From the IMG/VR virus record IMGVR_UViG_3300033148_004150, positions 1-50,965 of that record: a stretch of DNA of 50,965 nt. One strand, 5' to 3'. The notes beneath the pieces are model-generated. The model was not told the origin of the DNA. It was given only the letters and a program-made list of their open reading frames with translations, and did not search any database. The translations under genes and the position numbers were made by a program. This document shows, piece by piece, positions 31,297 through 36,255 of the stretch (positions are counted from its first letter, which is position 1; each line of letters opens with the position of its first letter). Source of the DNA: a virus.

Positions 31297-31330
31297 AGCC
31301 TTCTCCCTTCGTGTTGTGAGTGTTAGCCCC
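31297..31330 (-). repeat. Array linker (reference copy)
   Basis: Minus strand: GGGGCTAACACTCACAACAC followed by GAAGGGAGAAGGCT and ATG. The core ACTCACAA plus ribosome site recurs before the starts at 31790, 31518, 30623 and 28945, and shortened forms with AAGGGAGAAAGYY precede at least six more genes. Confidence 0.8.
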
Positions 31331-31518
31331 TACTTCCGATAGTTTCCACCTAGCCGCGTAAGCATATCGTTGGCCAGATGCCAAGTATCAAGCACCATTC
31401 GTCCCTCATCTTCTGCCAGTGTATTGGCAATACGCCGCAAGTCTGGTATCACAATGTCTTGAACATCTACGGGTCTGCGATGATCGGCACCAGCAACAGT
31501 TTCGATAATTACGGTCAT
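31330..31518 (-). CDS. Small array protein (62 aa)
   Basis: ATG 31518 behind CGAAGGGAGAAAGTT; the upstream extension lies in the linker and is rejected. The product is MTVIIETVAGADHRRPVDVQ followed by a helical region (LRRIANTLAEDEGRMVLDTW). No motif recognised. It is flanked by full linkers on both sides, so it is a clean single cassette. Confidence 0.6.
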   Translation of the reverse strand: MTVIIETVAGADHRRPVDVQDIVIPDLRRIANTLAEDEGRMVLDTWHLANDMLTRLGGNYRK

Positions 31519-31544
31519 AACTTTCTCCCTTCGTGTTGTGAGTG
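31519..31544 (-). repeat. Array linker copy
   Basis: Minus strand CACTCACAACACGAAGGGAG then AAAGTT before ATG 31518. Confidence 0.75.
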
Positions 31545-31565
31545 ACGTACACAAGACCACTAAAG

Positions 31566-31790
31566 TTAAGCGGGTGAGCCAAGTCTGGCATTGGCAAAGT
31601 AGTGTTTCTCGCAACCTTCCTCAATGCACACTGGACAGGCTCCCAAGTGCGTAGCTGGCCGGGAAAGCACTATCTCGGGGATAATATCCTCTGACTGGAC
31701 TTTCCTTACGTCGGTCCATTCGGGCGGGAAGTCGGCAGTGTGCTGAATCCCGCAGAACTTGCATTGTAGTCGAATCTCTTGACGGCTCAT
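31566..31790 (-). CDS. Array protein: zinc-ribbon D-family, copy 2 (74 aa)
   Basis: ATG 31790 behind GAAGGGAGAAAGTT. It has IRLQCKFCGIQHTADFPPEW, TDVRKV, and THLGACPVCIEEG, a paralogue of 29727-29990 with both Cys pairs kept. The C-terminal part (EKHYFANARLG) is repeated in a decayed copy exactly 300 bases upstream at 31870. As first intact gene of the array it lies nearest to the promoter at 31993. Confidence 0.65.
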   Translation of the reverse strand: MSRQEIRLQCKFCGIQHTADFPPEWTDVRKVQSEDIIPEIVLSRPATHLGACPVCIEEGCEKHYFANARLGSPA

Positions 31791-31824
31791 AACTTTCTCC
31801 CTTCACGTTGTGAGTGGTAGCCCC
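31791..31824 (-). repeat. Array linker copy
   Basis: Minus strand GGGGCTACCACTCACAACGT then GAAGGGAGAAAGTT before ATG 31790. Confidence 0.75.
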
Positions 31825-31869
31825 ATCACTCAATTCTACATTACACCTGGTCGGATGCAAGTAAAACTA

Positions 31870-31919
31870 ACGGGCGGGCTAAGCCTGGTATTGGCAAGGT
31901 AGTATTTATCACCACCTTC
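31870..31919 (-). pseudogene. Decayed copy of the D-family zinc-ribbon gene
   Basis: These 50 bases match 31570-31619 at 40 of 50 positions, without gaps. They encode EGGDKYYLANTRLSPP, against EGCEKHYFANARLGSP in the intact gene. The upstream Cys pairs and the start are lost. It is followed by a linker, as a true array gene would be, so it is the remnant of a former first cassette. Confidence 0.65.
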
Positions 31920-32490: not shown

Positions 32491-32535
32491 GTGCCGTGGG
32501 GGGGCCCCATTACTTCTGAAATCCGAACCACACCC

Positions 32536-32565
32536 CCCGCCCCCGATGACGCCGCCGGGGGCGGG
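32536..32565. other. GC-rich inverted repeat
   Basis: CCCGCCCCCG / CGGGGGCGGG, ten pairs with a ten-base loop. There is no T-run, so it is more likely a structural or protein-binding element than a terminator. Confidence 0.6.
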
Positions 32566-32786: not shown

Positions 32787-33121
32787 TACTAACCCGAAGT
32801 AGTTTTGTTGAAAATGATGTTGCAAACAGAAAAAACAACCCCAAATGGTAGGCTACATAAAGCAAAACTCCCTATACATATCGGAGTTATCTGACCTCCC
32901 CCTAGCGATGGAGACAATGTTGCGATGTTGCTAAGGGATCTGAGACCTTAAAGACTATAATCTAATAGGGGGATTGACAAGAAAAAGAACAGACTCCGCA
33001 ACATGCAACATTCTATAAAAAGAGAGAGAGAGAGAGAGAGAGAGTGAGTATATATAGGGAATTATATCTGGCCCGCCCCCCATTAGATGTTATTTGCAAC
33101 ATTCTAACAACAGCCCAACAT
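32754..33121. repeat. Iteron-like ATGTTGC / GCAACAT sites
   Basis: ATGTTGC at 32755-32761, 32817-32823, 32917-32923 and 32925-32931; the inverse GCAACAT at 32998-33004, 33005-33011 and 33096-33102, plus CCAACAT at 33115-33121. Four sites point one way and then three or four point the other, around about 32965. This layout suits a replication origin, a packaging start or a regulatory complex. No protein gene is supported in this stretch. Confidence 0.55.
33021..33044. repeat. (AG)12 microsatellite
   Basis: Twelve AG units next to two GCAACAT sites and an A/T-rich stretch. A site of easy strand opening or slippage. Confidence 0.95.
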
Positions 33122-33184
33122 TCTCTGGGCATTTTAGCCCTCAGAAAATTTTGTTATATATTAAAATGAAAATTCAGAAATCTC

Positions 33185-33213
33185 TTGACATCTATTGGAC
33201 GGCATGGTAAATT
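33185..33213 (+). promoter_or_regulatory. Promoter of the packaging/structural operon
   Basis: Perfect TTGACA (33185-33190), 17-base spacer ending GGCATGG, TAAATT (33208-33213). The spacer end GGCATGG is the same as in the promoter at 8787. Transcription starts just before the structured RNA at 33227. Confidence 0.7.
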
Positions 33214-33226
33214 AGAAGATGAAGTC

Positions 33227-33357
33227 ACGGCGGCAGCGTGGAGTGGACATGCAGCGTTTGTTGTGGTAAGCGTCGATGGGGACTCGCAACCCAGAACCCG
33301 CCCCATCTTGCGAGCATGGGGTTAATCATCGAGCCGGTCTCAAGTCCGGTCCGCCGT
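33227..33357 (+). ncRNA. Structured 5' leader with possible pseudoknot ahead of terminase genes
   Basis: An outer stem ACGGCGG (33227-33233) / CCGCCGT (33351-33357) encloses about 117 bases. Inside, GATGGGG (33275-33281) pairs with CCCCATC (33301-33307), and CTCGCAA (33283-33289) with TTGCGAG (33308-33314): the two stems cross, as in a pseudoknot or a two-state switch. A third option pairs CCCCAT (33301) with ATGGGG (33316-33321). A CCGG...CCGG hairpin follows at about 33334. It may be a riboswitch-like leader or a free RNA; no known class was recognised. Confidence 0.5.
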
Positions 33358-33399
33358 TGGCTTCTTTTTATTATGAAATAGATAAAGAAAAAGAAAACA

Positions 33400-34188
33400 A
33401 TGCATTTAAAAGCTAAACTTAATGATAAACAACGTGCCGAAGTAGTTAAACGATATACTTTTGGCGAAACTCAAGCAGCACTTGCCAAGGAATTTAAGGT
33501 AAGTATTTCGACTATTGGAAAAATTATTAAAAAGGCTAATGCTGGTAGACCTATGAAAACTAAGCAGGGACCGCGAGCTACACCGGCTGCCGCAATAGTC
33601 CAATTCGCTAAAAGAGCGAGATCAATTCTTTGGCGTCAAGAAAGTGGAGTAGTTAAGAAGTCTTATGATAAATGGAAGCAAGCTGTTGAGGAATTAAAGA
33701 AGAATGGAGGTTATACACAACAGCAAGCAATTGTTCAAGTATCAAAAGATTTCCCTTGTTTGAGGCGTTTATTTAAAGAATACAATGTTAGTGATTTCGA
33801 TCCTAATCCAGATTCACATCCGACAGTTGAAAATTGGGGCCAAAAATCTGTAGATGATATTGAATGCGAAGGCAAGAAGCAAAGTCATAGGCAAAATCTT
33901 ATGTGGGCAATTGAAGCTGCCGGAAAATATCTACGGACTGATATTACACCGTCCAAGGCTCCTAATGATGCTGCGTATTACCTTTATCGCCAGGCCATTG
34001 AGGAACCAAAGGACTTCCTTGGGAAATTTACTCAAATAGAATCTCGTGCAGATGATGAAGGGGAAAGGCAGCGCCGCTCCAGAGAAAAGGGGCAACGGAG
34101 TATTAGTGAAATCGAAGAGATGCTTGCTGAACTTGATAATAATTCCGGTGGGATTCCACCTTACACTGGAAATTTAGAGGAGAGTTGA
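33400..34188 (+). CDS. terS: Probable terminase small subunit
   Basis: A 262 aa protein. An N-terminal helix-turn-helix (DKQRAEVVKRYTFGETQAAL, KVSISTIGKIIKKANAGRP) is followed by a basic helical middle and an acidic C-terminal part (SISEIEEMLAELDNN). Position upstream of the large terminase, DNA-binding N-terminus and oligomerisation-type helices suit a small terminase subunit, which selects the viral DNA for packaging. It could also be a plain regulator; the helix-turn-helix is of a common recombinase-like kind. Confidence 0.6.
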   Translation: MHLKAKLNDKQRAEVVKRYTFGETQAALAKEFKVSISTIGKIIKKANAGRPMKTKQGPRATPAAAIVQFAKRARSILWRQESGVVKKSYDKWKQAVEELKKNGGYTQQQAIVQVSKDFPCLRRLFKEYNVSDFDPNPDSHPTVENWGQKSVDDIECEGKKQSHRQNLMWAIEAAGKYLRTDITPSKAPNDAAYYLYRQAIEEPKDFLGKFTQIESRADDEGERQRRSREKGQRSISEIEEMLAELDNNSGGIPPYTGNLEES

Positions 34189-34443: not shown

Positions 34444-36255
34444 GTGAAAACTCCGTTTATCCACCATGTCCCAACAGGGATGTTGGAGAATCTTAAATGG
34501 CGTTCTGCCGTTCATAAGCGAGTAATGGAGGAGCCTGGATACGCTAAAGTTATCTGGGATGCTTGTGCCATTGATCCGCTCTTTTACATTTGCGGATTTG
34601 GTTACACTTATGATCCTCGTTGCGAACCTTTCGCAAAACTTCCATTCATTCTGTATCCTTTTCAACGTGAAGGCTTGTTGAAAATCATTGATGCTATCAA
34701 CAAGCGTGATTTACTTGTTGAAAAATCAAGGGATACTGGCGCAAGTTGGATGTGTATTCTTGCTTTTGAGTGGCTATGGCATTTTTTCCCATTGAAATCT
34801 TTCTTAATGGGATCACGAACAGAAGATTATGTTGATAATACTGAAAATCCTAAGTCACTTTTTTGGAAACTGGATTTCTTCCAAGACAACCTTCCAACGT
34901 GGCTTATGCCAAATGGATTTAACCGAGCGGAACATCGCCGGAAACTACACCTTATCAATCCAGAAAATGGTAGTGTAATAGATGGGGAAAGCACCACTGG
35001 ACAATTTGCTCGTGGTGATCGTCGTACTGCGATTTTTCTTGATGAGTTTGCGGCAGTAGAATTCGGGCATAAGGTATTACCTGCCACGAGAGATGCAACT
35101 AGAAGTCGAATCTTTAATTCAACTCCATTGGGAATTAACAATGCCTTTTATGATGTTAGCCAAACCAATATCGAGAAACTTCGATTTCATTGGACGGAAC
35201 ATCCAGAGAAAAGGAAGGGTCTTTATACAACAAATGAAAATGGCCATCTTGTAATTCTTGATAAAGAGAATTATCCGAAAGATTACAAGCCAATCTTAGA
35301 TGGTAAACTTCGTTCGATTGCATATGATTACGAAGAATCACGCTCTTCTCCGCGCGAGATGGCTCAAGAATGGGATATTGATTATCTCGGATCTGGAGTG
35401 CAGTATTTCGATTCTGATCGTATCCAGATTGCTATTCGTACATATTCCAGACCACCAATAGTCATTGGAGATTTGGAGTATGATAGCGTTACTGGAGATC
35501 CTATTAGATTCAGGGAAAATGAGAATGGCCATATTCACCTCTGGTGTTTACTTGATAAGGACGGTAATATACCAAGGGAGCATAAAGCAGTGCTTGGTGC
35601 CGATGTATCAGCGGGAACTGGTAGTTCTAACTCATGCCTGTGTGGATATGATGCCATTACGAATGAGAAAATTCTTGAATATACTAGCCCGTATATTCGC
35701 CCGGAAGAGTTTGCCAAGCAAGCGGTAGCTATTGCTCGCTGGATGGGGGGTGCATACCTTATCTGGGAAAGTAATGGCCCAGGGCGTCAGTTTGGATCGC
35801 GGGTTATGGATCTTCGATATAGCAACATTTATTTCCGCAGGCGAGAGGAAGCTATCGGAAAGAAAATATCGCAGATTCCTGGGTGGGCATCATCCAGAGA
35901 GACGAAACTTGTTCTCTTGGGGGATTATCGTTCAGCAGTCGAAAAGGGAACATGTGTTAATCGTTCCAAGCAGGCACTTGAAGAATGTTTTGAATATATT
36001 CACGACCCAAAGGGGGGCGTTTCACATTCACGGGCAGATGATAAATCTGATCCATCAGGCGCAAGAGATAATCACGGCGATCATGTCATTGCTGATGCCC
36101 TGGCGTGGCGTGGGATGATTGAACGAAAAAATACACCTAAATCTAAAAAGCCTAATATCCCTGTTGGGTCATTAGCATGGCGCATGGCACAACGCAAGGC
36201 AATGAAATCGGAATCAGGACAACAACTTCTCAGGAGTGAGGGATGGCGATGGTAG
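34444..36255 (+). CDS. terL: Terminase large subunit
   Basis: A 603 aa protein starting at GTG 34444. The ATPase domain has a Walker A-like motif LVEKSRDTGASW (91-102) and a Walker B AIFLDEF (196-202). The C-terminal nuclease domain has ADVSAGTGSSN with the first metal Asp near 390, WESNGPG near 440, and DNHGDHVIADALAW near 555. These are the usual large-terminase landmarks: ATP-driven DNA translocation into the prohead and cutting of the concatemer. The gene overlaps the portal gene by 13 bases. Circular permutation of the assembly suits headful packaging. Confidence 0.95.
   Translation: MKTPFIHHVPTGMLENLKWRSAVHKRVMEEPGYAKVIWDACAIDPLFYICGFGYTYDPRCEPFAKLPFILYPFQREGLLKIIDAINKRDLLVEKSRDTGASWMCILAFEWLWHFFPLKSFLMGSRTEDYVDNTENPKSLFWKLDFFQDNLPTWLMPNGFNRAEHRRKLHLINPENGSVIDGESTTGQFARGDRRTAIFLDEFAAVEFGHKVLPATRDATRSRIFNSTPLGINNAFYDVSQTNIEKLRFHWTEHPEKRKGLYTTNENGHLVILDKENYPKDYKPILDGKLRSIAYDYEESRSSPREMAQEWDIDYLGSGVQYFDSDRIQIAIRTYSRPPIVIGDLEYDSVTGDPIRFRENENGHIHLWCLLDKDGNIPREHKAVLGADVSAGTGSSNSCLCGYDAITNEKILEYTSPYIRPEEFAKQAVAIARWMGGAYLIWESNGPGRQFGSRVMDLRYSNIYFRRREEAIGKKISQIPGWASSRETKLVLLGDYRSAVEKGTCVNRSKQALEECFEYIHDPKGGVSHSRADDKSDPSGARDNHGDHVIADALAWRGMIERKNTPKSKKPNIPVGSLAWRMAQRKAMKSESGQQLLRSEGWRW

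What the first reader, a model, noticed from the sequence alone, without database searches (positions are those of the whole stretch)
33227..33357. Crossing stems in the leader of the terminase operon
GATGGGG/CCCCATC and CTCGCAA/TTGCGAG interleave, and ATGGGG at 33316 offers a third partner for CCCCAT, all inside an outer ACGGCGG/CCGCCGT stem. This is a pseudoknot or a multi-state switch placed between a strong promoter and the packaging genes. A packaging-related RNA is one option.
Basis: partly seen in the sequence, partly recalled or inferred. Interest (0 to 1): 0.65.

Follow-up and report, generated by a model that had tools for sequence, protein, structure and literature searches.

The report
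Odd tRNA-like RNA before phage terminase
The predicted crossing stems lie in the oversized side arm of a 131-base RNA built like a transfer RNA with an unusable anticodon arm, placed just before the DNA-packaging genes of an uncultured phage, at a spot where several related phages also carry tRNA genes, many of them with abnormal anticodon arms.

Summary
The two crossing stems are linked by 1 and 0 nt, have pair probabilities of 5e-4 and 1e-5, and crossing 7-mers occur in about 3% of 131-nt stretches of this genome. A tRNA profile that ignores the anticodon arm gives one hit in the whole window, exactly 33227-33357 (30.4 bits); 207 Mb of shuffled sequence reached 26.3 bits at most. Rfam tRNA and default ARAGORN reject it. 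No relative carries this sequence, but phages of the same terminase family have tRNA genes at the same place (Pro, Glu, Met), and about seven of ten tRNA-like elements there have abnormal anticodon arms (C33 for U33, a 13-nt loop, an extended arm); 40 of 40 bacterial control tRNAs have U33. Best reading: a tRNA-derived, probably non-decoding RNA at the head of the packaging operon. Its function (processing signal, nuclease decoy, or relic) is undecided.

The parts
33185..33213 (+). promoter-like site TTGACA-17-TAAATT with TG before the -10 box; inferred start about 33220, some 7 nt before the RNA
   Evidence: 10 of 12 matches; not above chance in the region by count
33227..33233 (+). acceptor stem, 5' strand ACGGCGG
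   Evidence: 7 of 7 Watson-Crick, pair probability 0.95
33236..33252 (+). D arm GCGTG-GAGTGGA-CATGC with G18G19-like GG, after a 2-nt spacer CA (33234-33235)
   Evidence: (0.98)
33254..33273 (+). anticodon-like arm GCGTTTG-TTGTGG-TAAGCGT; no 7-nt loop with U33 in register
   Evidence: 0.85
33274..33332 (+). 59-nt variable arm closed by CGATG/CATCG (33274-33278 / 33327-33331)
   Evidence: 0.94
   Evidence: pair probability 0.0006; constrained energy -45.5 against -50.9
   Evidence: pair probability 0.00001; constrained energy -42.9
   Evidence: 0.99
33333..33350 (+). T arm GCCGG-TCTCAAGT-CCGGT, 8-nt loop (canonical TTCAAGT plus one C), stacked with 0 nt on the acceptor
   Evidence: (0.98)
33351..33357 (+). 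acceptor stem, 3' strand CCGCCGT; T at 33358 in discriminator position, no encoded CCA
33400..34188 (+). terminase small-subunit-like protein (N-terminal helix-turn-helix); gene starts 42 nt after the RNA
   Evidence: role inferred from position before TerL
34444..36255 (+). terminase large subunit
   Evidence: phrog_2, E 1e-18

Best explanation
33227-33357 is a tRNA-derived, non-canonical tRNA-like RNA at the head of the late (packaging) operon. Inferred: it is transcribed from the promoter about 40 bp upstream, keeps the elbow contacts (GG with the T loop), is cut out by RNase P and 3' tRNA processing, and does not decode. Most likely use: a tRNA mimic whose excision sets the 5' end of the terminase mRNA and/or which meets host tRNA-targeting factors; the pattern of abnormal anticodon arms in relatives fits such non-decoding or anticodon-nuclease-evading roles.
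For: MFE is a complete cloverleaf with spacers 2/1/0. Generic cloverleaf descriptor: exactly one hit in the window, this one. Profile from 34 bacterial tRNAs, all acceptor, D and T positions scored: 29.6 bits against a maximum of 0.3 among 2,305 chance cloverleaves. Anticodon-agnostic scan: one hit in the window on both strands, 30.4 bits; 207 Mb of shuffles: 5 hits of 18 bits or more, maximum 26.3; in the relatives essentially only tRNAs score. Synteny: tRNA-Pro about 30 nt before TerS (L093), tRNA-Glu (L050), tRNA-like with 13-nt anticodon loop about 24 nt before TerL (L259), tRNA-Met before a TerL homologue (L074), two in L162. Abnormal anticodon arms in many of these; 40 of 40 control tRNAs have U33.
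Against: Rfam tRNA (RF00005) gives no match even at E 10 and default ARAGORN none. U8, A14 and A21 are not conserved (C8, G14, C21), the T loop has 8 nt, no CCA. No homologue of this RNA in any relative, so no covariation test. Folding energy is not exceptional. Most relatives (about nine in ten) have no tRNA before the terminase. Transcription, processing and function are untested.
Confidence: 0.62

Rival explanations
1. A dead tRNA gene: a phage-borne class II or class I tRNA that acquired an insertion in its variable region and is decaying, without present function.
For: Lost invariants, insertion in the T loop, irregular anticodon arm; degenerate tRNA-like elements also in L157 and L108; most relatives do without.
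Against: All stems are still fully paired (7, 5, 6, 5 and 5 pairs), which free decay would break early; promoter-like site directly in front; recurrence of aberrant tRNA-like genes at the same place.
Confidence: 0.22
2. The reader's pseudoknot or multi-state switch in a leader that regulates or assists packaging.
For: Strings present and crossing; 1.5% of shuffles; lies before terminase genes.
Against: Linkers of 1 and 0 nt; pair probabilities 5e-4 and 1e-5; crossing 7-mers in 3% of stretches of this genome; not conserved in relatives.
Confidence: 0.06
3. An intron-containing tRNA-Ala(UGC): ARAGORN in intron mode joins CATGC and GCATG around a CTTGCGA loop after removal of 54 nt.
For:: canonical loop CTTGCGA with U33, same ends 33227-33358.
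Against: Needs a lowered threshold; 15% of shuffled regions give such a hit; takes the D-arm strand for the anticodon stem; no G3:U70; intron not in a usual place.
Confidence: 0.04
4. A twister-type self-cleaving ribozyme (the T arm resembles twister P4).
For: Best Rfam hit below threshold: Twister-P5, 19.8 bits, E 0.07; CCGGUCUCAAGUCCGG against CCGGUCcCAAGCCCGg.
Against: Far below the gathering score of 37.6; the P1 and cleavage-site part is skipped in the alignment; no UAA before the P2 strand.
Confidence: 0.02
5. A DNA-level signal (terminase binding site) or an ordinary leader with a chance cloverleaf.
For: Inverted repeats before a helix-turn-helix TerS; generic cloverleaf descriptors hit 0.7-0.8 times per shuffled strand.
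Against: Profile score far above all chance cloverleaves; the conserved DNA element of the family lies about 700 bp upstream, not here.
Confidence: 0.06

Closest known systems
Phage-encoded tRNAs with anticodon-loop mutations (van den Berg et al. 2023, PMC10264068)
   Same: tRNA-derived genes in phages whose anticodon loops deviate from the host's; proposed to withstand host anticodon nucleases
   Different: There the tRNAs are canonical cloverleaves with changes in the loop; here the whole anticodon arm is irregular and the variable arm has 59 nt
Class II tRNAs (Ser, Leu, Tyr) and tRNA-Sec
   Same: Cloverleaf with a base-paired long variable arm next to a 7/5 acceptor/T domain (class II)
   Different: Variable arm several times longer, 8-nt T loop, no canonical 7-nt anticodon loop, U8/A14/A21 missing
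Allo-tRNA and selC* tRNA-Cys (reviewed in PMC7609411)
   Same: Naturally occurring tRNAs with non-canonical cloverleaves and long variable arms
   Different: Those have longer acceptor and anticodon stems; here the acceptor/T domain is the standard 7/5 and the anticodon loop is not usable
Viral tRNA-like structures and tRNA mimics (reviewed in PMC5723415)
   Same: tRNA top half kept, decoding end altered, possible non-decoding role
   Different: Those reviewed are in RNA virus genomes; this is a DNA phage gene, function untested

Membership tests
canonical tRNA (Rfam RF00005) | match to the covariance model | tested here: not met
   no match at E 10 in the window; none in 33100-33500 at E 10
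canonical tRNA (Rfam RF00005) | 7-bp acceptor, 2-nt spacer, D arm, 1-nt spacer, anticodon arm, T arm of 5 bp with 0 nt to the acceptor | tested here: met
canonical tRNA (Rfam RF00005) | D-loop GG, T-loop TTCRA, G53:C61 | tested here: met
   met with one extra C in the T loop; 0.00018 per shuffled strand, profile 29.6 bits
canonical tRNA (Rfam RF00005) | U8, A14, A21 | tested here: not met
   C8, G14, C21
canonical tRNA (Rfam RF00005) | 5-bp anticodon stem, 7-nt loop with U33 | tested here: not met
   6-7 bp stem with 8-6 nt loop, no U33 register
canonical tRNA (Rfam RF00005) | aminoacylation and decoding | not testable with these tools
   needs the RNA
class II tRNA | base-paired variable arm of 10 or more nt | tested here: met
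   59 nt closed by CGATG/CATCG, pair probability 0.94; 10 nt criterion from PMC7609411
H-type pseudoknot | loops long enough to span the stems | tested here: not met
   linkers of 1 and 0 nt beside two 7-bp stems; steric argument by inference
twister ribozyme (RF02684) | P1 with the U-A cleavage site and the conserved L1 nucleotides | tested here: not met
   skipped in the alignment, 19.8 bits against 37.6
tmRNA | tRNA-like domain plus tag frame | tested here: not met
   ARAGORN tmRNA mode none

The most novel reading that the evidence does not exclude
A family of phages associated mainly with Planctomycetota and Verrucomicrobiota keeps non-decoding tRNA mimics (intact acceptor, D and T arms, broken or enlarged anticodon arms) at the head of the packaging operon, as RNA-processing punctuation for the terminase mRNA or as decoys for tRNA-targeting defence.
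Probability: 0.3. Interest if true: 0.75.

Novelty: new variant of a known kind. Interest (0 to 1): 0.5.

Why it matters
What phage tRNAs are for is an old question; codon compensation and escape from anticodon nucleases are the main answers. tRNA-like genes whose decoding end is broken while the acceptor/D/T half is intact cannot serve codon compensation, so this phage family separates the hypotheses. The element is also invisible to standard tRNA finders, so similar genes are probably missed elsewhere; an anticodon-agnostic tRNA profile found it at once.

Tried and rejected
Rfam, whole window and 19 relatives at gathering threshold, locus at E 10: only a sub-threshold twister. Phage GenBank records, blastn with short words: only A-rich chance matches. 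blastn of the RNA against about 150 fetched relatives' loci: nothing. The 16-mer AAGTCCGGTCCGCCGT in IMG/VR: 13 contigs, no more than chance would give for a collection of that size (size judged by inference). Intron-tRNA reading: 15% false-positive rate. Generic cloverleaf descriptor alone: not significant (0.7-0.8 per shuffled strand).

Full report
Setting. The window is an IMG/VR virus record of 50,965 bp. The terminase large subunit is 34444-36255 (PHROGs E 1e-18), preceded by a helix-turn-helix protein at 33400-34188 in the small-subunit position and followed by a weakly recognised portal. Relatives of TerL and TerS are numerous in IMG/VR. Those in GTDB genomes lie mostly in Planctomycetota, Verrucomicrobiota and Lentisphaerae assemblies, so the host is probably of that kind (inference).

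Observation. Three perfect 7-bp pairs in 131 nt are found in 0.8% of shuffles, a crossing pair in 1.5%; but 3.0% of all 131-nt stretches in this window hold a crossing 7/7 pair. The energy is not exceptional (z -0.86). The crossing by itself is therefore weak evidence of anything.

The crossing stems probably do not form together. GATGGGG and CTCGCAA are separated by one base and their partners CCCCATC and TTGCGAG are contiguous, so one strand would have to span a full helix with 0-1 nt. In the partition function the two stems have pair probabilities of 5e-4 and 1e-5, and enforcing them costs 5.4 and 8.0 kcal/mol. The alternative hairpin CCCCAT/ATGGGG has 0.99.

What the fold is. The minimum-energy structure is a complete tRNA cloverleaf: acceptor ACGGCGG/CCGCCGU; two bases; D arm GCGUG-GAGUGGA-CAUGC; one base; anticodon-like arm GCGUUUG-UUGUGG-UAAGCGU; a variable arm of 59 nt closed by CGAUG/CAUCG; T arm GCCGG-UCUCAAGU-CCGGU joined to the acceptor without a spacer. 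All arms have pair probabilities of 0.85-0.98.

Is it more than chance? A bare cloverleaf descriptor has one hit in the window, this one, but shuffled windows have 0.7-0.8 hits per strand, so geometry alone does not decide. Requiring GG in the D loop, TCRA in the T loop and G53:C61 lowers this to 0.00018 per strand, but those features were chosen with the hit in view. A profile was therefore trained on 34 tRNAs from bacterial genomes of the relatives' hosts and all acceptor, D and T positions were scored, favourable or not: the element gets 29.6 bits, while the best of 2,305 chance cloverleaves in 2,948 shuffled windows gets 0.3. A scan that ignores the anticodon arm finds exactly one hit on both strands of the window, 33227-33357, 30.4 bits; 207 Mb of shuffled sequence gives 5 hits of 18 bits or more, maximum 26.3. 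In 1.8 Mb of relatives the same scan returns little besides tRNAs.

It is not a normal tRNA. Rfam's tRNA model and ARAGORN at default settings reject it. U8, A14 and A21 are replaced, the T loop has one extra base, no CCA is encoded, and the anticodon arm has no 7-nt loop with U33. ARAGORN's intron mode offers a tRNA-Ala with a 54-nt insert, but 15% of shuffled regions do the same. A sub-threshold twister match rests on the likeness of the T arm to twister P4 and lacks the cleavage-site part.

Comparison with relatives. No relative carries this sequence, so covariation cannot be tested. But the place is a tRNA place: L093 has tRNA-Pro about 30 nt before the TerS match; L050 tRNA-Glu between the conserved GGGGGCCCCAT element and TerS; L074 tRNA-Met before a TerL homologue; L162 two tRNA-like genes; L163 one on the other strand; L259 one about 24 nt before TerL; L270 one at the end of a frame upstream of TerL; L157 and L235 weaker ones. 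Of 10 default ARAGORN tRNAs in 126 distinct terminase loci, 5 lie within 2 kb upstream of TerL; about 100 of those loci have at least 1 kb of upstream sequence, so most members have no recognisable tRNA there.

Anticodon arms are often abnormal in these genes: C33 instead of U33 in L050, L093, L163 and, further downstream, L107; a 13-nt loop in an otherwise regular cloverleaf in L259; an extended arm in L162 2461-2550, which otherwise scores 60.7 bits; degenerate arms in L157 and L108. All 40 control tRNAs have U33. L162 2291-2362, L270, L074 and L054 look normal. The control set is bacterial; phage tRNAs at large were not sampled.

Mechanism. Shown: tRNA-like architecture and sequence, position, recurrence of tRNA genes at that position, abnormal anticodon arms. 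Inferred: transcription from TTGACA-17-TAAATT with a leader of about 7 nt, tRNA-type folding, removal by RNase P and 3' processing, no decoding. Either the excision matters (a defined 5' end for the terminase mRNA) or the product matters (a mimic that withstands or occupies tRNA-targeting host factors). Anticodon-loop changes in phage tRNAs have been proposed to confer resistance to host anticodon nucleases (PMC10264068), and phage tRNAs can evade retron defence (PMC11555353). A relic without function remains possible (0.22).

Verdict.

Noticed in passing
window 32497-32545: A noncoding element GGGGGGGCCCCATTACTTCTGAAATCCGAACCACACCCCCCG is shared with relatives upstream of TerS (invariant GGGGCCCCA in 13 aligned loci); a cos/pac candidate, function untested.
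   Followed up: partly
L050 3685-3759, L093 188-264, L163 6224-6295, L107 14092-14163: Phage tRNAs of this family with C33 in place of the near-universal U33; 40 of 40 bacterial control tRNAs have U33.
   Followed up: partly
L259 5889-5965, L270 1590-1660, L074 180-256: Met-type tRNA-like genes just before TerL or inside the 3' end of the frame upstream of it, so that the tRNA is also read as C-terminal codons of that frame in L259 and L270.
   Followed up: no
L162 2240-2551: A cluster of tRNA genes and tRNA pieces before the terminase, one with an extended anticodon arm.
   Followed up: partly
L024 1135-2008 and L025 178-1042: About 900 nt of noncoding DNA before TerS conserved at 71% with many small indels between two phages.
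   Followed up: no
L054 13419, L107 14092, L108 about 13994: A second tRNA site about 7 kb downstream of the TerL start in three relatives.
   Followed up: no
window 31300-31870: Repeated stretch ACTTTCTCCCTTCGTGTTGTGAGTG between small minus-strand genes.
   Followed up: no
L069: A TerL 61% identical lies in a contig binned as Bathyarchaeota; more likely a misbinned phage contig than an archaeal virus.
   Followed up: no
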